Shown here piece after piece: positions 14,561 to 64,000 of a stretch of DNA of 64,000 nucleotides; the stretch's first letter is position 1, and each line of letters starts with the position of its first letter. The position numbers and the translations under genes were made by a program. The notes under the pieces are model-generated. The model had not been told where the DNA came from. It made no database searches and saw only the letters and a program-made list of their open reading frames with translations. This DNA is from Lepisosteus oculatus. Lineage: Eukaryota > Chordata > Actinopteri > Semionotiformes > Lepisosteidae. The stretch spans positions 43,966,490 through 44,030,489 of the forward strand of contig NC_090709.1 in NCBI RefSeq assembly GCF_040954835.1. The letters run 5' to 3'.

Positions 14561-14569
14561 ACAGTAACC

Positions 14570-27455: not shown

Positions 27456-27599
27456 CCCTCCCACAGCGATGATCAGCTCGTCTCACACGCGAGAAGTTTC
27501 GGTTGGAAACAAGCGCCCCCTCTTCTCGCACGTTTTGCACGTTCGAGTAGTTTTAATGCGGCTCTTTCGTACACGGTGCTGATCTTTTGGAAAGCAGGA

Positions 27600-27662
27600 G
27601 GCAAAACCGAGTCGAACCGCCTGGGTGAAAACCAGGAACCCTAACCGCTAGACTATATGGCA
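27600..27662 (-). pseudogene. tRNA-Glu(TTC) relic, unit 1
   Basis: The minus strand reads like tRNA-Glu from the D-arm (TAGTCTAGCGGTTAGG) through the anticodon arm (CCTGGTTTTCACCCAGG, anticodon TTC), but about ten bases of the variable region and T-stem are missing and the acceptor strands no longer pair. It recurs in every unit at offset 144-206. Confidence 0.75.
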
Positions 27663-27863
27663 GCGAACAACCATGCTGTTCACGGCATCAAGCAAGCAAA
27701 CTACATAAATATGAGAAAACACGCAAGAGAGTTGTCACTCAGAGTGTCGAAGGGTCGATGTATACTGGGGCTCAGTTGAAATGCAACGTCAGGACTTTTC
27801 CGAATTATGTCACACGAAGAGAGCACAGCCCTTTCCGCCCTGCCGCGTGTGTCTCGGTAACTC

Positions 27864-27935
27864 GCTGTGATCGTATAGTGGTCAGTACTTTGCGTTGTGG
27901 CCGCAACAACCCCGGTTCGAATCCGGGTCACGGCA
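27864..27935 (+). tRNA. tRNA-His (GTG), unit 1
   Basis: 72-nt cloverleaf GCTGTGATCGTATAGTGG to TCACGGCA, anticodon GTG in loop TTGTGGC, T-arm CCCGGTTCGAATCCGGG. The acceptor stem pairs throughout with one wobble. TTTT follows about 17 nt downstream, a good Pol III stop. The D-arm matches vertebrate tRNA-His except for one base. Confidence 0.95.
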
Positions 27936-28509
27936 GAATAGGGGCGTCTGCTTTTACTACTCGCGCGAATGAAGGCAAAAAAAAGCCAATCGACGTGAAC
28001 GAACGGCGCTTTACAGAGGAGTACTGCCTGACTGGATCGTTGATGAACGACAGAGGCCACTCCGACCTCTTCTCGGTTTTCTTCAATGACTTACTAAGGA
28101 TCTTCTTCACATTCGCCCATGCAGGGGAAGCCAGTTACACCAAAGCAAACGCAGGAAAGTGCATTTCAAGCAGAGACCAGGAGGGACTTGTTTACACCGA
28201 GAGTGGGCGGAGAATGGAACAATGCGCCCAGCCCTGTTGCTGGAGCCGATTCTTGATGAGCTCTTGGGCTCACTAAGAGGCCCCCGCTGGATGCTAATCT
28301 TTCTGTTGTTCTTGCAGGTCCTGCGCTGCTTTTGAGCCGACAGAGCTCGACCTGGTCTGTCGGCACAGCCCAATTGCAAATGATCGGCTCCGCGTACAGA
28401 AGGAACGTGCGTTTGGTACAAGAGTGCACGAAGGCACCGGAAATACATTGGGAACAAATGACCGGTCGCTCAAGACCTCTGTGAAGTACAGGAGCGTGCA
28501 AAACGAGGC

Positions 28510-28582
28510 TGTTTCCGCCCGGTCTCGAACCGGGGACCTTTCGCGTGTTAGGCGAACGTGATAGCCGCTACACTACGGAAAC
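28510..28582 (-). tRNA. tRNA-Val (AAC), unit 1
   Basis: 73-nt cloverleaf GTTTCCGTAGTGTAGCGG to GGCGGAAACA, anticodon loop CTAACAC. All stems pair. TTTT lies about 9 nt past the 3' end. Compared with the Val(CAC) gene of the same unit it differs in the D-arm, anticodon and one T-loop base. Confidence 0.95.
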
Positions 28583-28691
28583 CTGTAGGGACTGCTGCTG
28601 GTGTCTCGCTTGCGTTTCGGGCTGAGAAAGGGACGCGTCACTTTAGGCAGGTGGCGCTGGAGAGAGGAACAAAGGGCGCGATGAAACAAAA

Positions 28692-28752
28692 TGCCAAAAC
28701 CCGGGACCTTTAGATCTTCAGTCTAACGCTCTCCCAACTGAGCTATTTCGGC
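28692..28752 (-). pseudogene. tRNA-Phe (GAA) with 12-bp deletion, unit 1
   Basis: Same as tRNA-Phe of the other units up to the start of the T-arm, then 12 bp covering the T-loop and one side of the T-stem are missing, which removes the B-box. It should be neither transcribed properly nor folded. Confidence 0.9.
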
Positions 28753-29776
28753 AGTGCGCAAAGCCCACAGCCACCTGCTCCAGCCTTCCTGTGTTGTGGC
28801 ATGAGCGCACCAAGAGTAGCGGGAGAGTGTTGCAGGAACGTCACTCAGAAGGAAAGCCACCCAGCTGCGCCCTCTGAGCTCTGTCCAGCGCATCTTCCTC
28901 GCATGGACTCCTGCCTGCGACGGGCAGGAAACAATTAGCAAGAACAGAACGACACGCCATGGGTGTCTCATGACCGCACCTTAGGTTGTGACACGTGCAG
29001 GTGTGAGGGGTTGCCGGGCTACTTTGGAGCAGAGCTTGGGCGGAGGGGGGGCGGGAAAGCAGACAAAGAGGTGACACCTCAAGGTCTGCACGATCACAGC
29101 TCTCCGCCGCCCCAGGCTTCCGCTCGATAAGCTACTGGACACACCCGCCCCTCCTCACACAGACCGTGGAAAAGCCCCCGAGTGGGAGGGCTCGCTCTTC
29201 CTCCCAGGAGCTCTTGGACACGACGCCCAGACAGGGCGCGGGGAGCCGCCGCCTGCAAACACGGCTCCAGGCAGGACTCCACTCCGCAGGAGCCGCAGAG
29301 CAGAGGAGATGAGGGCAGCTTAGCTCCTGTGCAGAGACCTGAGCTGTTGTTGCTGTGGATGCTGTCTTTTCTGCACTCGGGGTAGGAGTGAATGTTGAGT
29401 TGCACTTAGAAATGAAGCAGAGCACTTCAACGGCACGGGTGTGTGTGTGTGTGCGCCCTGGTGATTCTGGGAGACAGATCGAACCTGGGCTAAAAGAGAG
29501 GGGGCTTAGCCCTCTTCCATTTGCTAGTTCAAAGTTGTACAACCCCTTTGTATCTGCTAGGCGGCGCAGTCGTCGTGCACAAAGAACACTTTGAAAAGCG
29601 TCAAAGGCAAGTCATTCCGAGTTGGTCGTTTGTGTTTTCCGTTCAGACGCGAAATGCTGACATGATCTCTCGGCTCCTCGGTTGTCATTTCTGCTCCGTA
29701 AAGGGATCACAGCACGCGTCGGCTTCCAGCATGCTGGGTCGGGACACGATGCCGGGGGTTGGAGAGAGCGATGTCT

Positions 29777-29848
29777 TCCTCGTTAGTATAGTGGCAAGTA
29801 TCCCCGCCTGTCACGCGGGAGACCGGGGTTCGATTCCCCGACGGGGAG
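29777..29848 (+). tRNA. tRNA-Asp (GTC), unit 1
   Basis: 72-nt cloverleaf TCCTCGTTAGTATAGTGG to ACGGGGAG, anticodon GTC in loop CTGTCAC, T-arm CCGGGGTTCGATTCCCCG. Matches vertebrate tRNA-Asp. TTTT starts within 6 nt of the 3' end. Confidence 0.95.
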
Positions 29849-30260
29849 TAGCTTTTCTTTCACCTCCTTAGAGAAATGACTGCCTTTCACTTCTCTGTTT
29901 TCTTTCACAGCGTCGTGCACCTTTTCATTGCTCTCGCTTTCAGAGCCTCCGCACGGCAGTCGACTCGACATCAGGAAGCACATTGAAGTGAAAGCAGGAA
30001 GCGCTGCGACATGCACTGTGCAGATCCCGCCACACTAAGAGGTGAGTGGGTCTGTTCGATGCACAAAGAACGCTTTGAGAAGCGTCAAAGGCAAGTCATT
30101 CCGAGTTGGTCGTTTGTGTTTTCCGTTCAGATGCGAAATGCTGAAATGATCTCTCGGCTCCTCGGTTGTCATTTCTGCTCCGTAAAGGAATCACAGCACG
30201 CGTCGGCTTCCAGCACGGTGGGTCGGGACACGATGCCGGGGGTCGGAGAGAGCGATGTCT

Positions 30261-30320
30261 TCCTCGTTAGTATAGGACCTGTCACCTGTCCCCACCTGTC
30301 ACGCGGGAGACTGGGGTGCA
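30261..30320 (+). pseudogene. tRNA-Asp relic, unit 1
   Basis: Second copy of the tRNA-Asp region within the unit duplication. The D-arm is rearranged after TTAGTATAG, and the gene is cut just after GCGGGAGACTGGGGT, with no B-box or acceptor strand. Present in all eleven units. Confidence 0.8.
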
Positions 30321-30469
30321 TCAGGACGCGCCTTGAAGTGAAAGCAGGATGCGCTGTGACATGCACTGTGCAGATCCCGCCACACTAAGAGGTGGGTCCA
30401 GTGGGTCTGTTCGATCACAGCGCTAGGCGAATCCCCAATCCCCTTTTGTGCCTGGCGACAAAAGACGTC

Positions 30470-30542
30470 TGTTTCCACCCGGTTTCGAACCGGGGACCTT
30501 TCGCGTGTGAGGCGAACGTGATAACCACTACACTACGGAAAC
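30470..30542 (-). tRNA. tRNA-Val (CAC), unit 1
   Basis: 73-nt cloverleaf GTTTCCGTAGTGTAGTGG to GGTGGAAACA, anticodon loop CTCACAC. Only in this unit the last acceptor pair is G:U rather than G:C. A T-run follows about 7 nt downstream. Confidence 0.93.
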
Positions 30543-31236
30543 GGTGGTAAGACGTGCCCAGCGGCCCAGCGCTGAGCTTCGCCAATGCGATTTAGCTGCT
30601 TCCAGTGCCTTTATTGGAGTGCGCTGATGGACCGTGCTCTCTCTCCAGAGACCAGCACGCCTGTCATGGACGGAGCAGGAAAGGCGGCGCCACATTCTAC
30701 AGCCCTCTCCACGCAATCGACGAAATCGGGCTACTGAAGTGGAGAAAATCGCCTCTCCAGAAAGTGCAAATATCATCTTGGAGACTATAAATCCTATTGC
30801 CGAAGGTCAGCCCTGTCTACCAGAGTAACCCTCCCACAGCGATGATCAGCTCGTCTCACACGCGAGAAGTTTCGGTTGGAAACAAGCGCCCCCTCTTCTC
30901 GCACGTTTTGCACGTTCGAGTAGTTTTAATGCGGCTCTTTCGTACACGGTGCTGATCTTTTGGAAAGCAGGAGGCAAAACCGAGTCGAACCGCCTGGGTG
31001 AAAACCAGGAACCCTAACCGCTAGACTATATGGCAGCGAACAACCATGCTGTTCACGGCATCAAGCAAGCAAACTACATAAATATGAGAAAACACGCAAG
31101 AGAGTTGTCACTCAGAGTGTCGAAGGGTCGATGTATACTGGGGCTCAGTTGAAATGCAACGTCAGGACTTTTCCGAATTATGTCACACGAAGAGAGCACA
31201 GCCCTTTCCGCCCTGCCGCGTGTGTCTCGGTAACTC

Positions 31237-31308
31237 GCTGTGATCGTATAGTGGTCAGTACTTTGCGTTGTGGCCGCAACAACCCCGGTTCGAATCCGGG
31301 TCACGGCA
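31237..31308 (+). tRNA. tRNA-His (GTG), unit 2
   Basis: Identical to the unit 1 gene; TTTT downstream. Confidence 0.95.
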
Positions 31309-31882
31309 GAATAGGGGCGTCTGCTTTTACTACTCGCGCGAATGAAGGCAAAAAAAAGCCAATCGACGTGAACGAACGGCGCTTTACAGAGGAGTACTGC
31401 CTGACTGGATCGTTGATGAACGACAGAGGCCACTCCGACCTCTTCTCGGTTTTCTTCAATGACTTACTAAGGATCTTCTTCACATTCGCCCATGCAGGGG
31501 AAGCCAGTTACACCAAAGCAAACGCAGGAAAGTGCATTTCAAGCAGAGACCAGGAGGGACTTGTTTACACCGAGAGTGGGCGGAGAATGGAACAATGCGC
31601 CCAGCCCTGTTGCTGGAGCCGATTCTTGATGAGCTCTTGGGCTCACTAAGAGGCCCCCGCTGGATGCTAATCTTTCTGTTGTTCTTGCAGGTCCTGCGCT
31701 GCTTTTGAGCCGACAGAGCTCGACCTGGTCTGTCGGCACAGCCCAATTGCAAATGATCGGCTCCGCGTACAGAAGGAACGTGCGTTTGGTACAAGAGTGC
31801 ACGAAGGCACCGGAAATACATTGGGAACAAATGACCGGTCGCTCAAGACCTCTGTGAAGTACAGGAGCGTGCAAAACGAGGC

Positions 31883-31955
31883 TGTTTCCGCCCGGTCTCG
31901 AACCGGGGACCTTTCGCGTGTTAGGCGAACGTGATAGCCGCTACACTACGGAAAC
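31883..31955 (-). tRNA. tRNA-Val (AAC), unit 2
   Basis: Identical to the unit 1 gene. Confidence 0.95.
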
Positions 31956-32064
31956 CTGTAGGGACTGCTGCTGGTGTCTCGCTTGCGTTTCGGGCTGAGA
32001 AAGGGACGCGTCACTTTAGGCAGGTGGCGCTGGAGAGAGGATCAAAGGGCGCGATGAAACAAAA

Positions 32065-32137
32065 TGCCAAAACCCGGGATCGAACCAGGGACCTTTAGAT
32101 CTTCAGTCTAACGCTCTCCCAACTGAGCTATTTCGGC
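32065..32137 (-). tRNA. tRNA-Phe (GAA), unit 2
   Basis: 73-nt cloverleaf GCCGAAATAGCTCAGTTGGG to TTTTGGCA, anticodon loop CTGAAGA, T-arm CCTGGTTCGATCCCGG. The fourth acceptor pair is G:U here (G:C in units 6, 7, 8, 10, 11). TTTT begins right after the discriminator A. Confidence 0.95.
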
Positions 32138-33161
32138 AGTGCGCAAAGCCCACAGCCACCTGCTCCAGCCTTCCTGTGTTGTGGCATGAGCGCACCAAGA
32201 GTAGCGGGAGAGTGTTGCAGGAACGTCACTCAGAAGGAAAGCCACCCAGCTGCGCCCTCTGAGCTCTGTCCAGCGCATCTTCCTCGCATGGACTCCTGCC
32301 TGCGACGGGCAGGAAACAATTAGCAAGAACAGAACGACACGCCATGGGTGTCTCATGACCGCACCTTAGGTTGTGACACCTGCAGGTGTGAGGGGTTGCC
32401 GGGCTACTTTGGAGCAGAGCTTGGGCGGAGGGGGGGCGGGAAAGCAGACAAAGAGGTGACACCTCAAGGTCTGCACGATCACAGCTCTCCGCCGCCCCAG
32501 GCTTCCGCTCGATAAGCTACTGGACACACCCGCCCCTCCTCACACAGACCGTGGAAAAGCCCCCGAGTGGGAGGGCTCGCTCTTCCTCCCAGGAGCTCTT
32601 GGACACGACGCCCAGACAGGGCGCGGGGAGCCGCCGCCTGCAAACACGGCTCCAGGCAGGACTCCACTCCGCAGGAGCCGCAGAGCAGAGGAGATGAGGG
32701 CAGCTTAGCTCCTGTGCAGAGACCTGAGCTGTTGTTGCTGTGGATGCTGTCTTTTCTGCACTCGGGGTAGGAGTGAATGTTGAGTTGCACTTAGAAATGA
32801 AGCAGAGCACTTCAACGGCACGGGTGTGTGTGTGTGTGCGCCCTGGTGATTCTGGGAGACAGATCGAACCTGGGCTAAAAGAGAGGGGGCTTAGCCCTCT
32901 TCCATTTGCTAGTTCAAAGTTGTACAACCCCTTTGTATCTGCTAGGCGGCGCAGTCGTCGTGCACAAAGAACACTTTGAAAAGCGTCAAAGGCAAGTCAT
33001 TCCGAGTTGGTCGTTTGTGTTTTCCGTTCAGACGCGAAATGCTGACATGATCTCTCGGCTCCTCGGTTGTCATTTCTGCTCCGTAAAGGGATCACAGCAC
33101 GCGTCGGCTTCCAGCATGCTGGGTCGGGACACGATGCCGGGGGTTGGAGAGAGCGATGTCT

Positions 33162-33233
33162 TCCTCGTTAGTATAGTGGCAAGTATCCCCGCCTGTCACG
33201 CGGGAGACCGGGGTTCGATTCCCCGACGGGGAG
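33162..33233 (+). tRNA. tRNA-Asp (GTC), unit 2
   Basis: Identical to the unit 1 gene. Confidence 0.95.
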
Positions 33234-33854
33234 TAGCTTTTCTTTCACCTCCTTAGAGAAATGACTGCCTTTCACTTCTCTGTTTTCTTTCACAGCGTCG
33301 TGCACCTTTTCATTGCTCTCGCTTTCAGAGCCTCCGCACGGCAGTCGACTCGACATCAGGAAGCACATTGAAGTGAAAGCAGGAAGCGCTGCGACATGCA
33401 CTGTGCAGATCCCGCCACACTAAGAGGTGAGTGGGTCTGTTCGATGCACAAAGAACGCTTTGAGAAGCGTCAAAGGCAAGTCATTCCGAGTTGGTCGTTT
33501 GTGTTTTCCGTTCAGACGCGAAATGCTGAAATGATCTCTCGGCTCCTCGGTTGTCATTTCTGCTCCGTAAAGGAATCACAGCACGCGTCGGCTTCCAGCA
33601 CGGTGGGTCGGGACACGATGCCGGGGGTCGGAGAGAGCGATGTCTTCCTCGTTAGTATAGGACCTGTCACCTGTCCCCACCTGTCACGCGGGAGACTGGG
33701 GTGCATCAGGACGCGCCTTGAAGTGAAAGCAGGATGCGCTGTGACATGCACTGTGCAGATCCCGCCACACTAAGAGGTGGGTCCAGTGGGTCTGTTCGAT
33801 CACAGCGCTAGGCGAATCCCCAATCCCCTTTTGTGCCTGGCGACAAAAGATGTC

Positions 33855-33927
33855 TGTTTCCGCCCGGTTTCGAACCGGGGACCTTTCGCGTGTGAGGCGA
33901 ACGTGATAACCACTACACTACGGAAAC
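33855..33927 (-). tRNA. tRNA-Val (CAC), unit 2
   Basis: Standard array sequence with a fully Watson-Crick acceptor stem (3' strand CGGAAAC). Confidence 0.95.
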
Positions 33928-34621
33928 GGTGGTAAGACGTGCCCAGCGGCCCAGCGCTGAGCTTCGCCAATGCGATTTAGCTGCTTCCAGTGCCTTTATT
34001 GGAGTGCGCTGATGGACCGTGCTCTCTCTCCAGAGACCAGCACGCCTGTCATGGACGGAGCAGGAAAGGCGGCGCCACATTCTACAGCCCTCTCCACGCA
34101 ATCGACGAAATCGGGCTACTGAAGTGGAGAAAATCGCCTCTCCAGAAAGTGCAAATATCATCTTGGAGACTATAAATCCTATTGCCGAAGGTCAGCCCTG
34201 TCTACCAGAGTAACCCTCCCACAGCGATGATCAGCTCGTCTCACACGCGAGAAGTTTCGGTTGGAAACAAGCGCCCCCTCTTCTCGCACGTTTTGCACGT
34301 TCGAGTAGTTTTAATGCGGCTCTTTCGTACACGGTGCTGATCTTTTGGAAAGCAGGAGGCAAAACCGAGTCGAACCGCCTGGGTGAAAACCAGGAACCCT
34401 AACCGCTAGACTATATGGCAGCGAACAACCATGCTGTTCACGGCATCAAGCAAGCAAACTACATAAATATGAGAAAACACGCAAGAGAGTTGTCACTCAG
34501 AGTGTCGAAGGGTCGATGTATACTGGGGCTCAGTTGAAATGCAACGTCAGGACTTTTCCGAATTATGTCACACGAAGAGAGCACAGCCCTTTCCGCCCTG
34601 CCGCGTGTGTCTCGGTAACTC

Positions 34622-34693
34622 GCTGTGATCGTATAGTGGTCAGTACTTTGCGTTGTGGCCGCAACAACCCCGGTTCGAATCCGGGTCACGGCA
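34622..34693 (+). tRNA. tRNA-His (GTG), unit 3
   Basis: Standard array copy. Confidence 0.95.
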
Positions 34694-35267
34694 GAATAGG
34701 GGCGTCTGCTTTTACTACTCGCGCGAATGAAGGCAAAAAAAAGCCAATCGACGTGAACGAACGGCGCTTTACAGAGGAGTACTGCCTGACTGGATCGTTG
34801 ATGAACGACAGAGGCCACTCCGACCTCTTCTCGGTTTTCTTCAATGACTTACTAAGGATCTTCTTCACATTCGCCCATGCAGGGGAAGCCAGTTACACCA
34901 AAGCAAACGCAGGAAAGTGCATTTCAAGCAGAGACCAGGAGGGACTTGTTTACACCGAGAGTGGGCGGAGAATGGAACAATGCGCCCAGCCCTGTTGCTG
35001 GAGCCGATTCTTGATGAGCTCTTGGGCTCACTAAGAGGCCCCCGCTGGATGCTAATCTTTCTGTTGTTCTTGCAGGTCCTGCGCTGCTTTTGAGCCGACA
35101 GAGCTCGACCTGGTCTGTCGGCACAGCCCAATTGCAAATGATCGGCTCCGCGTACAGAAGGAACGTGCGTTTGGTACAAGAGTGCACGAAGGCACCGGAA
35201 ATACATTGGGAACAAATGACCGGTCGCTCAAGACCTCTGTGAAGTACAGGAGCGTGCAAAACGAGGC

Positions 35268-35340
35268 TGTTTCCGCCCGGTCTCGAACCGGGGACCTTTC
35301 GCGTGTTAGGCGAACGTGATAGCCGCTACACTACGGAAAC
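35268..35340 (-). tRNA. tRNA-Val (AAC), unit 3
   Basis: Standard array copy. Confidence 0.95.
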
Positions 35341-35449
35341 CTGTAGGGACTGCTGCTGGTGTCTCGCTTGCGTTTCGGGCTGAGAAAGGGACGCGTCACT
35401 TTAGGCAGGTGGCGCTGGAGAGAGGATCAAAGGGCGCGATGAAACAAAA

Positions 35450-35522
35450 TGCCAAAACCCGGGATCGAACCAGGGACCTTTAGATCTTCAGTCTAACGCT
35501 CTCCCAACTGAGCTATTTCGGC
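35450..35522 (-). tRNA. tRNA-Phe (GAA), unit 3
   Basis: Standard copy with the G:U fourth acceptor pair. Confidence 0.95.
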
Positions 35523-36546
35523 AGTGCGCAAAGCCCACAGCCACCTGCTCCAGCCTTCCTGTGTTGTGGCATGAGCGCACCAAGAGTAGCGGGAGAGTGT
35601 TGCAGGAACGTCACTCAGAAGGAAAGCCACCCAGCTGCGCCCTCTGAGCTCTGTCCAGCGCATCTTCCTCGCATGGACTCCTGCCTGCGACGGGCAGGAA
35701 ACAATTAGCAAGAACAGAACGACACGCCATGGGTGTCTCATGACCGCACCTTAGGTTGTGACACCTGCAGGTGTGAGGGGTTGCCGGGCTACTTTGGAGC
35801 AGAGCTTGGGCGGAGGGGGGGCGGGAAAGCAGACAAAGAGGTGACACCTCAAGGTCTGCACGATCACAGCTCTCCGCCGCCCCAGGCTTCCGCTCGATAA
35901 GCTACTGGACACACCCGCCCCTCCTCACACAGACCGTGGAAAAGCCCCCGAGTGGGAGGGCTCGCTCTTCCTCCCAGGAGCTCTTGGACACGACGCCCAG
36001 ACAGGGCGCGGGGAGCCGCCGCCTGCAAACACGGCTCCAGGCAGGACTCCACTCCGCAGGAGCCGCAGAGCAGAGGAGATGAGGGCAGCTTAGCTCCTGT
36101 GCAGAGACCTGAGCTGTTGTTGCTGTGGATGCTGTCTTTTCTGCACTCGGGGTAGGAGTGAATGTTGAGTTGCACTTAGAAATGAAGCAGAGCACTTCAA
36201 CGGCACGGGTGTGTGTGTGTGTGCGCCCTGGTGATTCTGGGAGACAGATCGAACCTGGGCTAAAAGAGAGGGGGCTTAGCCCTCTTCCATTTGCTAGTTC
36301 AAAGTTGTACAACCCCTTTGTATCTGCTAGGCGGCGCAGTCGTCGTGCACAAAGAACACTTTGAAAAGCGTCAAAGGCAAGTCATTCCGAGTTGGTCGTT
36401 TGTGTTTTCCGTTCAGACGCGAAATGCTGACATGATCTCTCGGCTCCTCGGTTGTCATTTCTGCTCCGTAAAGGGATCACAGCACGCGTCGGCTTCCAGC
36501 ATGCTGGGTCGGGACACGATGCCGGGGGTTGGAGAGAGCGATGTCT

Positions 36547-36618
36547 TCCTCGTTAGTATAGTGGCAAGTATCCCCGCCTGTCACGCGGGAGACCGGGGTT
36601 CGATTCCCCGACGGGGAG
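36547..36618 (+). tRNA. tRNA-Asp (GTC), unit 3
   Basis: Standard array copy. Confidence 0.95.
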
Positions 36619-37239
36619 TAGCTTTTCTTTCACCTCCTTAGAGAAATGACTGCCTTTCACTTCTCTGTTTTCTTTCACAGCGTCGTGCACCTTTTCATTG
36701 CTCTCGCTTTCAGAGCCTCCGCACGGCAGTCGACTCGACATCAGGAAGCACATTGAAGTGAAAGCAGGAAGCGCTGCGACATGCACTGTGCAGATCCCGC
36801 CACACTAAGAGGTGAGTGGGTCTGTTCGATGCACAAAGAACGCTTTGAGAAGCGTCAAAGGCAAGTCATTCCGAGTTGGTCGTTTGTGTTTTCCGTTCAG
36901 ACGCGAAATGCTGAAATGATCTCTCGGCTCCTCGGTTGTCATTTCTGCTCCGTAAAGGAATCACAGCACGCGTCGGCTTCCAGCACGGTGGGTCGGGACA
37001 CGATGCCGGGGGTCGGAGAGAGCGATGTCTTCCTCGTTAGTATAGGACCTGTCACCTGTCCCCACCTGTCACGCGGGAGACTGGGGTGCATCAGGACGCG
37101 CCTTGAAGTGAAAGCAGGATGCGCTGTGACATGCACTGTGCAGATCCCGCCACACTAAGAGGTGGGTCCAGTGGGTCTGTTCGATCACAGCGCTAGGCGA
37201 ATCCCCAATCCCCTTTTGTGCCTGGCGACAAAAGATGTC

Positions 37240-37312
37240 TGTTTCCGCCCGGTTTCGAACCGGGGACCTTTCGCGTGTGAGGCGAACGTGATAACCACTA
37301 CACTACGGAAAC
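37240..37312 (-). tRNA. tRNA-Val (CAC), unit 3
   Basis: Standard array copy. Confidence 0.95.
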
Positions 37313-38006: not shown

Positions 38007-38078
38007 GCTGTGATCGTATAGTGGTCAGTACTTTGCGTTGTGGCCGCAACAACCCCGGTTCGAATCCGGGTCACGGCA
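38007..38078 (+). tRNA. tRNA-His (GTG), unit 4
   Basis: Standard array copy. Confidence 0.95.
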
Positions 38079-53471: not shown

Positions 53472-53543
53472 TCCTCGTTAGTATAGTGGCAAGTATCCCC
53501 GCCTGTCACGCGGGAGACCGGGGTTCGATTCCCCGACGGGGAG
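53472..53543 (+). tRNA. tRNA-Asp (GTC), unit 8
   Basis: Standard array copy. Confidence 0.95.
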
Positions 53544-54152
53544 TAGCTTTTCTTTCACCTCCTTAGAGAAATGACTGCCTTTCACTTCTCTGTTTTCTTT
53601 CACAGCGTCGTGCACCTTTTCATTGCTCTCGCTTTCAGAGCCTCCGCACGGCAGTCGACTCGACATCAGGAAGCACATTGAAGTGAAAGCAGGAAGCGCT
53701 GCGACATGCACTGTGCAGATCCCGCCACACTAAGAGGTGAGTGGGTCTGTTCGATGCACAAAGAACGCTTTGAGAAGCGTCAAAGGCAAGTCATTCCGAG
53801 TTGGTCGTTTGTGTTTTCCGTTCAGACGCGAAATGCTGAAATGATCTCTCGGCTCCTCGGTTGTCATTTCTGCTCCGTAAAGGAATCACAGCACGCGTCG
53901 GCTTCCAGCACGGTGGGTCGGGACACGATGCCGGGGGTCGGAGAGAGCGATGTCTTCCTCGTTAGTATAGGACCTGTCACCTGTCCCCACCTGTCACGCG
54001 GGAGACTGGGGTGCATCAGGACGCGCCTTGAAGTGAAAGCAGGATGCGCTGTGCAGATCCCGCCACACTAAGAGGTGGGTCCAGTGGGTCTGTTCGATCA
54101 CAGCGCTAGGCGAATCCCCAATCCCCTTTTGTGCCTGGCGACAAAAGATGTC

Positions 54153-54225
54153 TGTTTCCGCCCGGTTTCGAACCGGGGACCTTTCGCGTGTGAGGCGAAC
54201 GTGATAACCACTACACTACGGAAAC
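54153..54225 (-). tRNA. tRNA-Val (CAC), unit 8
   Basis: Standard array copy. Confidence 0.95.
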
Positions 54226-54919
54226 GGTGGTAAGACGTGCCCAGCGGCCCAGCGCTGAGCTTCGCCAATGCGATTTAGCTGCTTCCAGTGCCTTTATTGG
54301 AGTGCGCTGATGGACCGTGCTCTCTCTCCAGAGACCAGCACGCCTGTCATGGACGGAGCAGGAAAGGCGGCGCCACATTCTACAGCCCTCTCCACGCAAT
54401 CGACGAAATCGGGCTACTGAAGTGGAGAAAATCGCCTCTCCAGAAAGTGCAAATATCATCTTGGAGACTATAAATCCTATTGCCGAAGGTCAGCCCTGTC
54501 TACCAGAGTAACCCTCCCACAGCGATGATCAGCTCGTCTCACACGCGAGAAGTTTCGGTTGGAAACAAGCGCCCCCTCTTCTCGCACGTTTTGCACGTTC
54601 GAGTAGTTTTAATGCGGCTCTTTCGTACACGGTGCTGATCTTTTGGAAAGCAGGAGGCAAAACCGAGTCGAACCGCCTGGGTGAAAACCAGGAACCCTAA
54701 CCGCTAGACTATATGGCAGCGAACAACCATGCTGTTCACGGCATCAAGCAAGCAAACTACATAAATATGAGAAAACACGCAAGAGAGTTGTCACTCAGAG
54801 TGTCGAAGGGTCGATGTATACTGGGGCTCAGTTGAAATGCAACGTCAGGACTTTTCCGAATTATGTCACACGAAGAGAGCACAGCCCTTTCCGCCCTGCC
54901 GCGTGTGTCTTGGTAACTC

Positions 54920-54991
54920 GCTGTGATCGTATAGTGGTCAGTACTTTGCGTTGTGGCCGCAACAATCCCGGTTCGAATCCGGGTCACGGCA
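54920..54991 (+). tRNA. tRNA-His (GTG), unit 9
   Basis: Differs from the other copies by C-to-T at 54966, in the variable loop beside the T-stem; folding is unaffected. Confidence 0.93.
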
Positions 54992-55566
54992 GAATAGGGG
55001 CGTCTGCTTTTACTACTCGCGCGAATGAAGGCAAAAAAAAAGCCAATCGACGTGAACGAACGGCGCTTTACAGAGGAGTACTGCCTGACTGGATCGTTGA
55101 TGAACGACAGAGGCCACTCCGACCTCTTCTCGGTTTTCTTCAATGACTTACTAAGGATCTTCTTCACATTCGCCCATGCAGGGGAAGCCAGTTACACCAA
55201 AGCAAACGCAGGAAAGTGCATTTCAAGCAGAGACCAGGAGGGACTTGTTTACACCGAGAGTGGGCGGAGAATGGAACAATGCGCCCAGCCCTGTTGCTGG
55301 AGCCGATTCTTGATGAGCTCTTGGGCTCACTAAGAGGCCCCCGCTGGATGCTAATCTTTCTGTTGTTCTTGCAGGTCCTGCGCTGCTTTTGAGCCGACAG
55401 AGCTCGACCTGGTCTGTCGGCACAGCCCAATTGCAAATGATCGGCTCCGCGTACAGAAGGAACGTGCGTTTGGTACAAGAGTGCACGAAGGCACCGGAAA
55501 TACATTGGGAACAAATGACCGGTCGCTCAAGACCTCTGTGAAGTACAGGAGCGTGCAAAACGAGGC

Positions 55567-55639
55567 TGTTTCCGCCCGGTCTCGAACCGGGGACCTTTCG
55601 CGTGTTAGGCGAACGTGATAGCCGCTACACTACGGAAAC
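55567..55639 (-). tRNA. tRNA-Val (AAC), unit 9
   Basis: Standard array copy. Confidence 0.95.
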
Positions 55640-55748
55640 CTGTAGGGACTGCTGCTGGTGTCTCGCTTGCGTTTCGGGCTGAGAAAGGGACGCGTCACTT
55701 TAGGCAGGTGGCGCTGGAGAGAGGAACAAAGGGCGCGATGAAACAAAA

Positions 55749-55821
55749 TGCCAAAACCCGGGATCGAACCAGGGACCTTTAGATCTTCAGTCTAACGCTC
55801 TCCCAACTGAGCTATTTCGGC
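55749..55821 (-). tRNA. tRNA-Phe (GAA), unit 9
   Basis: Copy with the G:U fourth acceptor pair. Confidence 0.95.
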
Positions 55822-56845
55822 AGTGCGCAAAGCCCACAGCCACCTGCTCCAGCCTTCCTGTGTTGTGGCATGAGCGCACCAAGAGTAGCGGGAGAGTGTT
55901 GCAGGAACGTCACTCAGAAGGAAAGCCACCCAGCTGCGCCCTCTGAGCTCTGTCCAGCGCATCTTCCTCGCATGGACTCCTGCCTGCGACGGGCAGGAAA
56001 CAATTAGCAAGAACAGAACGACACGCCATGGGTGTCTCATGACCGCACCTTAGGTTGTGACACGTCCAGGTGTGAGGGGTTGCCGGGCTACTTTGGAGCA
56101 GAGCTTGGGCGGAGGGGGGGCGGGAAAGCAGACAAAGAGGTGACACCTCAAGGTCTGCACGATCACAGCTCTCCGCCGCCCCAGGCTTCCGCTCGATAAG
56201 CTACTGGACACACCCGCCCCTCCTCACACAGACCGTGGAAAAGCCCCCGAGTGGGAGGGCTCGCTCTTCCTCCCAGGAGCTCTTGGACACGACGCCCAGA
56301 CAGGGCGCGGGGAGCCGCCGCCTGCAAACACGGCTCCAGGCAGGACTCCACTCCGCAGGAGCCGCAGAGCAGAGGAGATGAGGGCAGCTTAGCTCCTGTG
56401 CAGAGACCTGAGCTGTTGTTGCTGTGGATGCTGTCTTTTCTGCACTCGGGGTAGGAGTGAATGTTGAGTTGCACTTAGAAATGAAGCAGAGCACTTCAAC
56501 GGCACGGGTGTGTGTGTGTGTGCGCCCTGGTGATTCTGGGAGACAGATCGAACCTGGGCTAAAAGAGAGGGGGCTTAGCCCTCTTCCATTTGCTAGTTCA
56601 AAGTTGTACAACCCCTTTGTATCTGCTAGGCGGCGCAGTCGTCGTGCACAAAGAACACTTTGAAAAGCGTCAAAGGCAAGTCATTCCGAGTTGGTCGTTT
56701 GTGTTTTCCGTTCAGACGCGAAATGCTGACATGATCTCTCGGCTCCTCGGTTGTCATTTCTGCTCCGTAAAGGGATCACAGCACGCGTCGGCTTCCAGCA
56801 TGCTGGGTCGGGACACGATGCCGGGGGTTGGAGAGAGCGATGTCT

Positions 56846-56917
56846 TCCTCGTTAGTATAGTGGCAAGTATCCCCGCCTGTCACGCGGGAGACCGGGGTTC
56901 GATTCCCCGACGGGGAG
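56846..56917 (+). tRNA. tRNA-Asp (GTC), unit 9
   Basis: Standard array copy. Confidence 0.95.
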
Positions 56918-57538
56918 TAGCTTTTCTTTCACCTCCTTAGAGAAATGACTGCCTTTCACTTCTCTGTTTTCTTTCACAGCGTCGTGCACCTTTTCATTGC
57001 TCTCGCTTTCAGAGCCTCCGCACGGCAGTCGACTCGACATCAGGAAGCACATTGAAGTGAAAGCAGGAAGCGCTGCGACATGCACTGTGCAGATCCCGCC
57101 ACACTAAGAGGTGAGTGGGTCTGTTCGATGCACAAAGAACGCTTTGAGAAGCGTCAAAGGCAAGTCATTCCGAGTTGGTCGTTTGTGTTTTCCGTTCAGA
57201 CGCGAAATGCTGAAATGATCTCTCGGCTCCTCGGTTGTCATTTCTGCTCCGTAAAGGAATCACAGCACGCGTCGGCTTCCAGCACGGTGGGTCGGGACAC
57301 GATGCCGGGGGTCGGAGAGAGCGATGTCTTCCTCGTTAGTATAGGACCTGTCACCTGTCCCCACCTGTCACGCGGGAGACTGGGGTGCATCAGGACGCTC
57401 CTTGAAGTGAAAGCAGGATGCGCTGTGACATGCACTGTGCAGATCCCGCCACACTAAGAGGTGGGTCCAGTGGGTCTGTTCGATCACAGCGCTAGGCGAA
57501 TCCCCAATCCCCTTTTGTGCCTGGCGACAAAAGATGTC

Positions 57539-57611
57539 TGTTTCCGCCCGGTTTCGAACCGGGGACCTTTCGCGTGTGAGGCGAACGTGATAACCACTAC
57601 ACTACGGAAAC
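57539..57611 (-). tRNA. tRNA-Val (CAC), unit 9
   Basis: Standard array copy. Confidence 0.95.
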
Positions 57612-58305
57612 GGTGGTAAGACGTGCCCAGCGGCCCAGCGCTAAGCTTCGCCACTGCGATTTAGCTGCTTCCAGTGCCTTTATTGGAGTGCGCTGATGGA
57701 CCGTGCTCTCTCTCCAGAGACCAGCACGCCTGTCATGGACGGAGCAGGAAAGGCGGCGCCACATTCTACAGCCCTCTCCACGCAATCGACGAAATCGGGC
57801 TACTGAAGTGGAGAAAATCGCCTCTCCAGAAAGTGCAAATATCATCTTGGAGACTATAAATCCTATTGCCGAAGGTCAGCCCTGTCTACCAGAGTAACCC
57901 TCCCACAGCGATGATCAGCTCGTCTCACACGCGAGAAGTTTCGGTTGGAAACAAGCGCCCCCTCTTCTCGCACGTTTTGCACGTTCGAGTAGTTTTAATG
58001 CGGCTCTTTCGTACACGGTGCTGATCTTTTGGAAAGCAGGAGGCAAAACCGAGTCGAACCGCCTGGGTGAAAACCAGGAACCCTAACCGCTAGACTATAT
58101 GGCAGCGAACAACCATGCTGTTCACGGCATCAAGCAAGCAAACTACATAAATATGAGAAAACACGCAAGAGAGTTGTCACTCAGAGTGTCGAAGGGTCGA
58201 TGTATACTGGGGCTCAGTTGAAATGCAACGTCAGGACTTTTCCGAATTATGTCACACGAAGAGAGCACAGCCCTTTCCGCCCTGCCGCGTGTGTCTCGGT
58301 AACTC

Positions 58306-58377
58306 GCTGTGATCGTATAGTGGTCAGTACTTTGCGTTGTGGCCGCAACAACCCCGGTTCGAATCCGGGTCACGGCA
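58306..58377 (+). tRNA. tRNA-His (GTG), unit 10
   Basis: Standard array copy. Confidence 0.95.
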
Positions 58378-58903
58378 GAATAGGGGCGTCTGCTTTTACT
58401 ACTCGCGCGAATGAAGGCAAAAAAAAGCCAATCGACGTGAACGAACGGCGCTTTACAGAGGAGTACTGCCTGACTGGATCGTTGATGAACGACAGAGGCC
58501 ACTCCACTGCCCATGCAGGGGAAGCCAGTTACACCAAAGCAAACGCAGGAAAGTGCATTTCAAGCAGAGACCAGGAGGGACTTGTTTACACCGAGAGTGG
58601 GCGGAGAATGGAACAATGCGCCCAGCCCTGTTGCTGGAGCCGATTCTTGATGAGCTCTTAGGCTCACTAAGAGGCCCCCGCTGGATGCTAATCTTTCTGT
58701 TGTTCTTGCAGGTCCTGCGCTGCTTTTGAGCCGACAGAGCTCGACCTGGTCTGTCGGCACAGCCCAATTGCAAATGATCGGCTCCGCGTACAGAAGGAAC
58801 GTGCGTTTGGTACAAGAGTGCACGAAGGCACCGGAAATACATTGGGAACAAATGACCGGTCGCTCAAGACCTCTGTGAAGTACAGGAGCGTGCAAAACGA
58901 GGC

Positions 58904-58976
58904 TGTTTCCGCCCGGTCTCGAACCGGGGACCTTTCGCGTGTTAGGCGAACGTGATAGCCGCTACACTACGGAAAC
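58904..58976 (-). tRNA. tRNA-Val (AAC), unit 10
   Basis: Standard array copy. Confidence 0.95.
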
Positions 58977-59085
58977 CTGTAGGGACTGCTGCTGGTGTCT
59001 CGCTTGCGTTTCGGGCTGAGAAAGGGACGCGTCACTTTAGGCAGGTGGCGCTGGAGAGAGGAACAAAGGGCGCGATGAAACAAAA

Positions 59086-59158
59086 TGCCGAAACCCGGGA
59101 TCGAACCAGGGACCTTTAGATCTTCAGTCTAACGCTCTCCCAACTGAGCTATTTCGGC
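59086..59158 (-). tRNA. tRNA-Phe (GAA), unit 10
   Basis: Copy with the G:C fourth acceptor pair. Confidence 0.95.
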
Positions 59159-60391
59159 AGTGCGCAAAGCCCACAGCCACCTGCTCCAGCCTTCCTGTGT
59201 TGTGGCATGAGCGCACCAAGAGTAGCGGGAGAGTGTTGCAGGAACGTCACTCAGAAGGAAAGCCACCCAGCTGCGCCCTCTGAGCTCTGTCCAGCGCATC
59301 TTCCTCGCATGGACTCCTGCCTGCGACGGGCAGGAAACAATTAGCAAGAACAGAACGACACGCCATGGGTGTCTCATGACCGCACCTTAGGTTGTGACAC
59401 GTCCAGGTGTGAGGGGTTGCCGGGCTACTTTGGAGCAGAGCTTGGGCGGAGGGGGGGCGGGAAAGCAGACAAAGAGGTGACACCTCAAGGTCTGCACGAT
59501 CACAGCTCTCCGCCGCCCCAGGCTTCCGCTCGATAAGCTACTGGACACACCCGCCCCTCCTCACACAGACCGTGGAAAAGCCCCCGAGTGGGAGGGCTCG
59601 CTCTTCCTCCCAGGAGCTCTTGGACACGACGCCCAGACAGGGCGCGGGGAGCCGCCGCCTGCAAACACGGCTCCAGGCAGGACTCCACTCCGCAGGAGCC
59701 GCAGAGCAGAGGAGATGAGGGCAGCTTAGCTCCTGTTCAGAGACCTGAGCTGTTGTTGCTGTGGATGCTGTCTTTTCTGCACTCGGGGTAGGAGTGAATG
59801 TTGAGTTGCACTTAGAAATGAAGCAGAGCACTTCAACGGCACGGGTGTGTGTGTGTGTGCGCCCTGGTGATTCTGGGAGACAGATCGAACCTGGGCTAAA
59901 AGAGAGGGGGCTTAGCCCTCTTCCATTTGCTAGTTCAAAGTTGTACAACCCCTTTGTATCTGCTAGGCGGCGCAGTCGTCGTGCACAAAGAACACTTTGA
60001 AAAGCGTCAAAGGCAAGTCATTCCGAGTTGGTCGTTTGTGTTTTCCGTTCAGACGCGAAATGCTGACATGATCTCTCGGCTCCTCGGTTGTCATTTCTGC
60101 TCCGTAAAGGAATCACAGCACGCGTCGGCTTCCAGCACGGTGGGTCGGGACACGATGCCGGGGGTCGGAGAGAGCGATGTCTTCCTCGTTAGTATAGGAC
60201 CTGTCACCTGTCCCCACCTGTCACGCGGGAGACTGGGGTGCATCAGGACGCGCCTTGAAGTGAAAGCAGGATGCGCTGTGACATGCACTGTGCAGATCCC
60301 GCCACACTAAGAGGTGGGTCCAGTGGGTCTGTTCGATCACAGCGCTAGGCGAATCCCCAATCCCCTTTTGTGCCTGGCGACAAAAGATATC

Positions 60392-60464
60392 TGTTTCCGC
60401 CCGGTTTCGAACCGGGGACCTTTCGCGTGTGAGGCGAACGTGATAACCACTACACTACGGAAAC
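60392..60464 (-). tRNA. tRNA-Val (CAC), unit 10
   Basis: Gene body standard; the flank just downstream has a private change (AAGATATCTG). Confidence 0.95.
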
Positions 60465-61158
60465 GGTGGTAAGATGTGCCCAGCGGCCCAGCGCTGAGCT
60501 TCGCCAATGCGATTTAGCTGCTTCCAGTGCCTTTATTGGAGTGCGCTGATGGACCGTGCTCTCTCTCCAGAGACCAGCACGCCTGTCATGGACGGAGCAG
60601 GAAAGGCGGCGCCACATTCTACAGCCCTCTCCACGCAATCGACGAAATCGGGCTACTGAAGTGGAGAAAATCGCCTCTCCAGAAAGTGCAAATATCATCT
60701 TGGAGACTATAAATCCTATTGCCGAAGGTCAGCCCTGTCTACCAGAGTAACCCTCCCACAGCGATGATCAGCTCGTCTCACACGCGAGAAGTTTCGGTTG
60801 GAAACAAGCGCCCCCTCTTCTCGCACGTTTTGCACGTTCGAGTAGTTTTAATGCGGCTCTTTCGTACACGGTGCTGATCTTTTGGAAAGCAGGAGGCAAA
60901 ACCGAGTCGAACCGCCTGGGTGAAAACCAGGAACCCTAACCGCTAGACTATATGGCAGCGAACAACCATGCTGTTCACGGCATCAAGCAAGCAAACTACA
61001 TAAATATGAGAAAACACGCAAGAGAGTTGTCACTCAGAGTGTCGAAGGGTCGATGTATACTGGGGCTCAGTTGAAATGCAACGTCAGGACTTTTCCGAAT
61101 TATGTCACACGAAGAGAGCACAGCCCTTTCCGCCCTGCCGCGTGTGTCTCGGTAACTC

Positions 61159-61230
61159 GCTGTGATCGTATAGTGGTCAGTACTTTGCGTTGTGGCCGCA
61201 ACAACCCCGGTTCGAATCCGGGTCACGGCA
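61159..61230 (+). tRNA. tRNA-His (GTG), unit 11
   Basis: Standard array copy. Confidence 0.95.
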
Positions 61231-61804
61231 GAATAGGGGCGTCTGCTTTTACTACTCGCGCGAATGAAGGCAAAAAAAAGCCAATCGACGTGAACGAACG
61301 GCGCTTTACAGAGGAGTACTGCCTGACTGGATCGTTGATGAACGACAGAGGCCACTCCGACCTCTTCTCGGTTTTCTTCAATGACTTACTAAGGATCTTC
61401 TTCACATTCGCCCATGCAGGGGAAGCCAGTTACACCAAAGCAAACGCAGGAAAGTGCATTTCAAGCAGAGACCAGGAGGGACTTGTTTACACCGAGAGTG
61501 GGCGGAGAATGGAACAATGCGCCCAGCCCTGTTGCTGGAGCCGATTCTTGATGAGCTCTTGGGCTCACTAAGAGGCCCCCGCTGGATGCTAATCTTTCTG
61601 TTGTTCTTGCAGGTCCTGCGCTGCTTTTGAGCCGACAGAGCTCGACCTGGTCTGTCGGCACAGCCCAATTGCAAATGATCGGCTCCGCGTACAGAAGGAA
61701 CGTGCGTTTGGTACAAGAGTGCACGAAGGCACCGGAAATACATTGGGAACAAATGACCGGTCGCTCAAGACCTCTGTGAAGTACAGGAGCGTGCAAAACG
61801 AGGC

Positions 61805-61877
61805 TGTTTCCGCCCGGTCTCGAACCGGGGACCTTTCGCGTGTTAGGCGAACGTGATAGCCGCTACACTACGGAAAC
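61805..61877 (-). tRNA. tRNA-Val (AAC), unit 11
   Basis: Standard array copy. Confidence 0.95.
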
Positions 61878-61986
61878 CTGTAGGGACTGCTGCTGGTGTC
61901 TCGCTTGCGTTTCGGGCTGAGAAAGGGACGCGTCACTTTAGGCAGGTGGCGCTGGAGAGAGGAACAAAGGGCGCGATGAAACAAAA

Positions 61987-62059
61987 TGCCGAAACCCGGG
62001 ATCGAACCAGGGACCTTTAGATCTTCAGTCTAACGCTCTCCCAACTGAGCTATTTCGGC
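61987..62059 (-). tRNA. tRNA-Phe (GAA), unit 11
   Basis: Copy with the G:C fourth acceptor pair. Confidence 0.95.
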
Positions 62060-63083
62060 AGTGCGCAAAGCCCACAGCCACCTGCTCCAGCCTTCCTGTG
62101 TTGTGGCATGAGCGCACCAAGAGTAGCGGGAGAGTGTTGCAGGAACGTCACTCAGAAGGAAAGCCACCCAGCTGCGCCCTCTGAGCTCTGTCCAGCGCAT
62201 CTTCCTCGCATGGACTCCTGCCTGCGACGGGCAGGAAACAATTAGCAAGAACAGAACGACACCCCATGGGTGTCTCATGACCGCACCTTAGGTTGTGACA
62301 CGTGCAGGTGTGAGGGGTTGCCGGGCTACTTTGGAGCAGAGCTTGGGCGGAGGGGGGGCGGGAAAGCAGACAAAGAGGTGACACCTCAAGGTCTGCACGA
62401 TCACAGCTCTCCGCCGCCCCAGGCTTCCGCTCGATAAGCTACTGGACACACCCGCCCCTCCTCACACAGACCGTGGAAAAGCCCCCGAGTGGGAGGGCTC
62501 GCTCTTCCTCCCAGGAGCTCTTGGACACGACGCCCAGACAGGGCGCGGGGAGCCGCCGCCTGCAAACACGGCTCCAGGCAGGACTCCACTCCGCAGGAGC
62601 CGCAGAGCAGAGGAGATGAGGGCAGCTTAGCTCCTGTGCAGAGACCTGAGCTGTTGTTGCTGTGGATGCTGTCTTTTCTGCACTCGGGGTAGGAGTGAAT
62701 GTTGAGTTGCACTTAGAAATGAAGCAGAGCACTTCAACGGCACGGGTGTGTGTGTGTGTGCGCCCTGGTGATTCTGGGAGACAGATCGAACCTGGGCTAA
62801 AAGAGAGGGGGCTTAGCCCTCTTCCATTTGCTAGTTCAAAGTTGTACAACCCCTTTGTATCTGCTAGGCGGCGCAGTCGTCGTGCACAAAGAACACTTTG
62901 AAAAGCGTCAAAGGCAAGTCATTCCGAGTTGGTCGTTTGTGTTTTCCGTTCAGACGCGAAATGCTGACATGATCTCTCGGCTCCTCGGTTGTCATTTCTG
63001 CTCCGTAAAGGGATCACAGCACGCGTCGGCTTCCAGCATGCTGGGTCGGGACACGATGCCGGGGGTTGGAGAGAGCGATGTCT

Positions 63084-63155
63084 TCCTCGTTAGTATAGTG
63101 GCAAGTATCCCCGCCTGTCACGCGGGAGACCGGGGTTCGATTCCCCGACGGGGAG
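63084..63155 (+). tRNA. tRNA-Asp (GTC), unit 11
   Basis: Standard array copy. Confidence 0.95.
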
Positions 63156-63776
63156 TAGCTTTTCTTTCACCTCCTTAGAGAAATGACTGCCTTTCACTTC
63201 TCTGTTTTCTTTCACAGCGTCGTGCACCTTTTCATTGCTCTCGCTTTCAGAGCCTCCGCACGGCAGTCGACTCGACATCAGGAAGCACATTGAAGTGAAA
63301 GCAGGAAGCGCTGCGACATGCACTGTGCAGATCCCGCCACACTAAGAGGTGAGTGGGTCTGTTCGATGCACAAAGAACGCTTTGAGAAGCGTCAAAGGCA
63401 AGTCATTCCGAGTTGGTCGTTTGTGTTTTCCGTTCAGACGCGAAATGCTGAAATGATCTCTCGGCTCCTCGGTTGTCATTTCTGCTCCGTAAAGGAATCA
63501 CAGCACGCGTCGGCTTCCAGCACGGTGGGCAGGGACACGATGCCGGGGGTCGGAGAGAGCGATGTCTTCCTCGTTAGTATAGGACCTGTCACCTGTCCCC
63601 ACCTGTCACGCGGGAGACTGGGGTGCATCAGGACGCGCCTTGAAGTGAAAGCAGGATGCGCTGTGACATGCACTGTGCAGATCCCGCCACACTAAGAGGT
63701 GGGTCCAGTGGGTCTGTTCGATCACAGCGCTAGGCGAATCCCCAATCCCCTTTTGTGCCTGGCGACAAAAGATGTC

Positions 63777-63849
63777 TGTTTCCGCCCGGTTTCAAACCGG
63801 GGACCTTTCGCGTGTGAGGCGAACGTGATAACCACTACACTACGGAAAC
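63777..63849 (-). tRNA. tRNA-Val (CAC), unit 11, B-box variant
   Basis: Same as the other copies except that the T-loop reads TTTGAAA instead of TTCGAAA: the invariant C56 is replaced. C56 pairs with G19 in the tRNA elbow and is a core base of the B-box, so transcription and folding are probably weakened. Confidence 0.85.
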
Positions 63850-64000
63850 GGTGGTAAGACGTGCCCAGCGGCCCAGCGCTGAGCTTCGCCAATGCGATTT
63901 AGCTGCTTCCAGTGCCTTTATTGGAGTGCGCTGATGGACCGTGCTCTCTCTCCAGAGACCAGCACGCCTGTCATGGACGGAGCAGGAAAGGCGGCGCCAC

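What the first reader, a model, noticed from the sequence alone, without database searches (positions are those of the whole stretch)
27456..64000. Large homogeneous tandem array of a 3,385-bp unit with five tRNA genes on both strands
Eleven head-to-tail copies each carry His(GTG), Val(AAC), Phe(GAA), Asp(GTC) and Val(CAC), nearly all intact and with T-run stops, on alternating strands. Copies are nearly identical over the spacers too, so the array is kept uniform by unequal exchange or gene conversion, like rDNA. The known parallel is the 3.18-kb Xenopus laevis tDNA unit, but its tRNA set differs. The array runs out of the window, so total copy number is unknown.
Basis: partly seen in the sequence, partly recalled or inferred. 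Interest (0 to 1): 0.75.

Follow-up and report, generated by a model that had tools for sequence, protein, structure and literature searches.

The report
Tandem tRNA-gene array on one chromosome
A 3.4-kilobase block with five transfer-RNA genes is repeated head to tail about fourteen times here and again elsewhere on the same chromosome, a large-scale example of a kind of repeat already known from humans.

Summary
From 27456 to the window's end lie 11 head-to-tail units (six of ten complete ones exactly 3385 bp; 99.5-100% identical), each built with His-GTG, Val-AAC, Phe-GAA, Asp-GTC and Val-CAC genes; ARAGORN of 55. In the assembly the array runs on to 49.8 kb: 14 full and two partial units. 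A spacer word of the unit occurs 759 times in the genome; all 100 places listed are on this 60-Mb chromosome. A private array subtype occurs 88 times, all on the chromosome's last 17 Mb. A neighbouring array 250 kb away begins at the same unit position but has about five units: copy number changed after duplication. tRNA genes are no better conserved than spacers, so exchange, not selection on each copy, best explains the uniformity. Variants inside the arrays look like decay of methylated DNA. Closest known: the human 1q23.3 tDNA VNTR and the tRNA-rich long arm of zebrafish chromosome 4. Expression is untested; maternal (egg) tRNA supply is the more interesting reading, a largely silent satellite the main rival. 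New member of a known kind, unusual in scale.

The parts
27456..27863 (+). Partial first unit (unit positions 2978-3385): left border of the array
   Evidence: 100% to unit consensus over 408 bp; the neighbouring array at C14:44245326 starts at the same unit position
27864..31236 (+). Unit 1 (3373 bp); Phe gene shortened by 12 bp
31237..34621 (+). Unit 2 (3385 bp), used as the representative unit below
31237..31308 (+). tRNA-His (GTG)
   Evidence: ARAGORN; 57.9 bits Rfam
31883..31955 (-). tRNA-Val (AAC), array isodecoder
   Evidence: ARAGORN; 59.9 bits in the equivalent gene of unit 6; missed by Rfam's fast filters
32065..32137 (-). tRNA-Phe (GAA)
   Evidence: 67.5 bits
33162..33233 (+). tRNA-Asp (GTC), array isodecoder
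   Evidence: 56.9 bits
33855..33927 (-). tRNA-Val (CAC)
   Evidence: 66.3 bits
32961..33450 (+). Internal duplication, first copy (holds the intact Asp gene); borders approximate
   Evidence: 93% self-match of unit 1725-1978 with 2209-2466 and 89% of 2118-2214 with 2468-2568; spacing 484
33445..33804 (+). Internal duplication, second copy (holds a broken Asp relic at about 33645-33710); borders approximate
34365..34420 (-). Glu (TTC) tRNA relic lacking part of the T-arm; ARAGORN calls a Glu gene in related copies at four other C14 loci (L004, L029, L030 and window-frame 134285)
34622..58305 (+). Units 3-9 (3385 bp five times, then 3373 and 3386 bp)
58306..61158 (+). Unit 10 (2853 bp): a 484-bp deletion, equal to the spacing of the internal duplicates, leaves no Asp call; also a 48-bp deletion
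61159..64000 (+). Unit 11, cut by the window end; the array continues to window-frame 77214
25544..27127 (.). Repeated element just left of the array; part of it (25545-26339) lies inverted just right of the array (window-frame 77468-78266, 93%)

Best explanation
This is a tDNA macrosatellite. A multi-gene tRNA cluster was duplicated onto or within one chromosome, a 3385-bp His/Val/Phe/Asp/Val segment became a tandem unit, and unequal crossing-over and conversion between units, together with large segmental duplications, multiplied and homogenised it into several arrays. Shown: unit, array, shared variants, copy-number difference between duplicated arrays, a related diverged locus on another chromosome (C2). 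Inferred: that the C2 locus resembles the founder; that the genes can be transcribed by Pol III (intact genes and T-run stops only). Not shown: expression. If the arrays are used, bulk tRNA supply in the female germ line is the likeliest use, by analogy with zebrafish.
For: Eleven units at 99.48-100% with equally uniform spacers. The edge unit A15 is 98.9% identical to the rest, against 99.84% among A01-A14. Array B, 250 kb away, has the same left junction and 99.89% identity to A01-A14, but five His-to-His units and the start of a sixth, against 14 full units; window 1-15223 recurs 248,782 bp away at 99.8%. The 12-bp deletion of A08 occurs in B03 and B05; T at unit position 806 is shared by A02-A05. 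The 484-bp deletion in unit 10 equals the spacing of the internal duplicates. Private subtype: 88 of 88 places on C14, 41 successive spacings of exactly 3385. tRNA genes not better conserved than spacers across 11 sources: 81/2775 against 519/24121 mismatches. Array-type Asp and Val-AAC sequences nearly confined to C14 among rows listed: 99 of 100 listed (of 261) and 100 of 100 listed (of 229). A C2 locus is a collinear relative at 78-88% in two blocks.
Against: No correlation between distance and identity within A01-A14 (rho -0.06; 562 of 2000 permutations as low), so a purely local stepwise exchange is not demonstrated. Units 2, 3 and 5 are identical, which an assembler could also produce; no reads were available. 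The array-type His anticodon arm also occurs 8 times on C2, so His is not private to the arrays. No expression data. Pattern searches list 100 places at most, so contigs after C14 were not seen for the counts 759, 464, 261 and 229.
Confidence: 0.85

Rival explanations
1. Silent satellite: the array is heterochromatic and methylated, spreads and is homogenised like any satellite, and its tRNA genes are passengers that contribute little or nothing to the tRNA pool. (This and the next concern use, not origin, and are compatible with the best explanation.)
For: Variants among A01-A14 and B01-B05 are biased to CpG transitions: 11 at 458 CpG positions against 5 at 1413 other C/G positions, about 7-fold, P 0.0002; the edge unit A15 alone 6 and 4, about 4.6-fold: the mark of methylated DNA. 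tRNA genes are not more conserved than spacers. The three single copies read are 3.2-4.0% diverged. [quoted passage not shown]
Against: 53 of 55 genes in the window are called as tRNA genes and the 17 array genes printed have terminators. Methylated tDNA clusters can still be switched on in special cells: the Arabidopsis SYY cluster (PMC12308677, abstract).
Confidence: 0.45
2. Maternal tRNA supply: arrays on this chromosome are expressed in growing oocytes and load the egg with tRNA, while dispersed genes serve the soma.
For: [quoted passage not shown] that chromosome-4 tRNA genes are maternal was put forward as a hypothesis (PMC11075544, passages). Here the Asp and Val-AAC array isodecoders are nearly C14-only in the rows listed, and the human-type His anticodon arm was found once, on C2.
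Against: Array-type His is also on C2. The 5S and U1 genes that accompany tRNA genes on zebrafish 4q are not on C14 among the hits scored: 0 of 47 and 0 of 42, though these are few of 63,500 and 22,159 candidates. CpG decay suggests germ-line methylation. The search for the human-type Asp gene did not complete.
Confidence: 0.35
3. Assembly artefact: a few real units were expanded by the assembler.
For: Units 2, 3 and 5 do not differ; at least 15 kb are repeated 248.8 kb away at 99.8%, which false duplication could also give.
Against: Units carry their own substitutions and indels of 1, 8, 12, 48 and 484 bp; six arrays of the subtype lie at different places and on both strands; array B differs from A by an insertion in the flank and in unit number.
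Confidence: 0.08

Closest known systems
Human 1q23.3 tDNA variable-number tandem repeat (Darrow and Chadwick 2014, PMC4041453; outline with abstract and one section read)
   Same: GC-rich unit with five tRNA genes on both strands, tandem, 98% identity between units, tens of copies
   Different: 7.3-kb unit, Leu/Gly/Glu/Gly/Asp set, one locus with 9-43 units per allele and a CTCF site conserved in mouse; here 3.4 kb, His/Val/Phe/Asp/Val, several arrays on one chromosome; CTCF-like core words in the unit are only two, against 0.3 expected
tRNA-rich long arm of zebrafish chromosome 4 (PMC11417395, PMC11075544, PMC11574265; passages read)
   Same: Large numbers of tRNA genes in repeats on one chromosome
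   Different: There with maternal 5S, snRNA and zinc-finger genes; Rfam finds no 5S or snRNA in the 264 kb read continuously here; homology of the chromosomes was not tested
Xenopus laevis 3.18-kb tDNA unit (recalled; no paper on it among the 10 of 83 listed)
   Same: Unit size and multi-tRNA tandem organisation (recalled)
Entamoeba tRNA gene arrays (PMC2652664, start of abstract in listing)
   Same: Tandem units with up to five tRNA genes
   Different: There 25 array types hold almost all tRNA genes, with short tandem repeats between genes; in this window Tandem Repeats Finder reports no short array inside the units

Membership tests
tDNA tandem macrosatellite (type: human 1q23.3) | Head-to-tail units of several kb, near-identical including spacers | tested here: met
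tDNA tandem macrosatellite (type: human 1q23.3) | Several intact tRNA genes per unit | tested here: met
   53 of 55 by ARAGORN; five genes of one unit 56.9-69.8 bits
tDNA tandem macrosatellite (type: human 1q23.3) | Copy number varies between alleles | not testable with these tools
   One assembly only; duplicated arrays A (14 full units) and B (five and the start of a sixth) differ
tDNA tandem macrosatellite (type: human 1q23.3) | CTCF binding | tested here: inconclusive
   Two core-word matches per unit, 0.3 expected from 500 mononucleotide shuffles; the word is recalled, binding not testable
Zebrafish 4q-type maternal RNA gene block | Most tRNA genes of the genome concentrated on one arm | tested here: inconclusive
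   True of this unit: 88 of 88 places of the subtype on C14 42.9-59.4 Mb and 100 of 100 listed of 759 for the unit word on C14; but 86 of those 100 lie at 3.2-34.0 Mb, and the genome's tRNA genes as a whole were not counted
Zebrafish 4q-type maternal RNA gene block | Maternal 5S and U1/U6 genes in the same region | tested here: inconclusive
   None in the 264 kb read continuously; the 5S and U1 hits scored lie on C1, C11 and small contigs, 0 on C14; one U1-like match (89 bits) at C14:25.0 Mb
Zebrafish 4q-type maternal RNA gene block | Isodecoders distinct from those of dispersed genes | tested here: inconclusive
   Asp and Val-AAC nearly C14-only in rows listed; His shared with C2; human-type Asp search did not complete
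Zebrafish 4q-type maternal RNA gene block | Expression in oocyte or egg | not testable with these tools
   No expression data held

The most novel reading that the evidence does not exclude
This chromosome is a specialised tRNA chromosome: copies of one tRNA unit lie along much of it (3-34 and 43-59 Mb), with its own Asp and Val-AAC isodecoders, used in the female germ line; a second vertebrate case, independent of or homologous to zebrafish 4q, which would make a 'maternal tRNA chromosome' a recurring design.
Probability: 0.25. Interest if true: 0.75.

Novelty: new member of a known kind. Interest (0 to 1): 0.5.

Why it matters
It is a clearly assembled example of a tRNA-gene satellite with internal markers (private variants, a divergent edge unit, two duplicated arrays of different length), so that rates and modes of homogenisation of Pol III genes can be measured. 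The array-type Asp and Val-AAC sequences make the question whether repeat-encoded tRNAs are used in eggs directly testable by tRNA sequencing in this species.

Tried and rejected
Selection on each tRNA gene as the cause of uniformity: not supported. Genes differ at 81 of 2775 sites and spacers at 519 of 24121, Fisher P 0.012 with the genes the more variable; gapped sites are also commoner in genes, 84 against 149. Copies that read N were dropped, which biases at least one gene upward; leaving out the gene most affected gives 56 of 2114, 2.6% against 2.2%, by subtraction. L006 and L008, which overlap L001 and L005, were left out of that count. Germ-line-unmethylated array, suggested by a CpG observed/expected of 0.88 in the unit against 0.66 in the left flank: not supported, since variants show CpG-type decay. 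Array-private His isodecoder: rejected, 8 identical anticodon arms on C2. Similarity falling with distance between units: no signal. 5S or U1 co-location on C14: not found among the hits scored. Human-type CTCF boundary: only a weak motif excess. Paper searches (capped listings with starts of abstracts) listed no paper that I recognised as describing a tandem multi-tRNA unit in another fish; beyond the zebrafish chromosome-4 papers there is a survey of tRNA gene clusters (PMC2888827, passages). One paper search of ten was not used. A search for the human-type Asp sequence and one for the ZP gene did not complete, so the two-class test for Asp is half done.
Full report
What is there. The window lies at C14:43966490-44030489 of a 1.2-Gb assembly in 813 contigs. 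From 27456 it consists of a partial unit of 408 bp and 11 head-to-tail units; six of the ten complete units are 3385 bp, the others differ by indels of 1, 12, 48 and 484 bp. Identity outside gaps is 99.48-100%. ARAGORN of 55 tRNA genes. In a unit scored with permissive filters the five genes reach 56.9 to 69.8 bits. Rfam's fast filters lost all 11 Val-AAC genes, a reminder not to read that as decay. Each full unit also has an internal duplication with a broken Asp relic, and a Glu relic; in related copies at four other C14 loci (L004, L029, L030, window-frame 134285) ARAGORN calls a Glu gene. The ancestral unit therefore probably had six tRNA genes and the amplified subtype five; that is an inference. 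G+C is 0.55 in the unit against 0.42 in the left flank.

How far it extends. With 200 kb of adjoining sequence the array ends at window-frame 77214: 14 full units and a shortened fifteenth, 49.8 kb in all. Part of the element at the left border lies inverted at the right border. Window positions 1-15223 recur 248,782 bp further on at 99.8%, up to the end of what was fetched. Beyond, a second array, B, begins at the same unit position, with a 2.6-kb insertion in its left flank. It has five His-to-His units and a sixth His; its end was not read.

On the chromosome. A 36-base spacer word occurs 759 times in the genome with up to two mismatches, reversed control 0. The 100 places listed are all exact and all on C14: 86 between 3.2 and 34.0 Mb (median gap 269 kb, one gap under 8 kb) and 14 from 42.9 Mb on, where spacings near 3385 appear. 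The other 659 were not listed. A word private to the array subtype occurs 88 times with up to one mismatch, all 88 listed, all on C14 between 42.9 and 59.4 Mb: six arrays of 3 to 17, four pairs, 18 singles; 41 spacings are exactly 3385. The zone at 34-43 Mb was sampled once, at 36.5 Mb, and is a 36-bp satellite there. A locus at C2:77.51 Mb, 1000 bp read, matches the unit collinearly at 78% and 88% in two blocks; together with eight array-type His arms at C2:77.5-77.8 Mb and one human-type arm nearby it looks like a surviving relative of the founder cluster. That is an inference.

How it is kept uniform. Units A01-A14 average 99.84% identity, array B 99.96%, A against B 99.89%, both against L001 and L002 (copies at 43.1 and 50.9 Mb) 99.2-99.3%. 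The edge unit A15 is at 98.9%. Unit 10 lost its Asp call by a deletion as long as the spacing of the internal duplicates, and the 12-bp deletion of A08 occurs twice in B. Across 11 sources the tRNA genes differ at 81 of 2775 sites and spacers at 519 of 24121, so the genes are not specially protected; if anything they vary more. Against a simple picture: identity does not fall with distance inside the array, and A and B are not set apart from each other.

Is it used? Sequence says that the genes could be transcribed: intact structures, and TTTT terminators in the 17 array genes printed. It does not say that they are. Variants among A01-A14 and B01-B05 are biased to CpG transitions about 7-fold, P 0.0002, as in methylated DNA, although the unit is still rich in CpG. 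The Asp and Val-AAC sequences of the unit are nearly private to C14 as far as listed: 261 places, of 100 listed 1 on C6 and 99 on C14; and 229 places, 100 of 100 listed on C14. Rows seem to come in contig order, so C1-C13 probably hold no others, but contigs after C14 were not seen. His is not private. In zebrafish, egg isodecoders come from repeats and late ones from scattered genes (PMC11417395, passages), yet tRNA gene number does not track tRNA level and chromosome 4 is heterochromatic (PMC11574265, passages). I therefore hold maternal supply at about one third and a largely silent satellite at somewhat under one half.

What is known. The human 1q23.3 repeat (PMC4041453, abstract and one section) has the same anatomy: five tRNA genes on both strands of a GC-rich unit, tens of copies. 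Tandem tRNA units are also known from Entamoeba (PMC2652664, start of abstract in a listing) and, from recall, Xenopus. [quoted passage not shown] The kind is known; the tRNA set, the subtype history and the scale on one chromosome are what this case adds.

Noticed in passing
window 18625-20117 (-): Two neighbouring ORFs match the zona-pellucida (egg-coat) domains ZP-N (3.4e-06) and ZP-C (6.8e-06), both above Pfam's cut-off, about 7 kb from the array. CpG is very low next to it, at 16-19 kb. A genome search for its copies did not complete.
   Followed up: partly
window 930-10052: A second tRNA group (Lys-TTT x3, Ala x2, Pro) that is part of the block repeated 248,782 bp away at 99.8%.
   Followed up: partly
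G000:C1:5530803-5698415: 5S rRNA genes, many at a spacing of about 3336 bp, with U1 genes between several of them: a linked 5S-U1 tandem array. Several small contigs (such as C401, C552, C574) also carry both genes.
   Followed up: no
L034 446-581 (C14:25.0 Mb): A U1-like match of 89 bits, far below the genome's best U1 copies (about 170 bits), perhaps a relic.
   Followed up: no
L032 (C14:36.5 Mb): 4 kb made wholly of a 36-bp, CpG-rich satellite in a zone where no unit word was listed; perhaps centromeric.
   Followed up: no
window 23868-23939 (+): A tRNA-like match (46.7 bits, Rfam) that ARAGORN does not call.
   Followed up: no
window 26286-26935: A 179-bp tandem repeat, 3.7 copies, inside the element that borders the array.
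   Followed up: no
window-frame 133692-135283 (C14, 69.7 kb right of the window end): An inverted, about 10% diverged older copy of the unit with His and Glu calls; it is closer to the C2 locus (84%) than the array units are (78%).
   Followed up: partly
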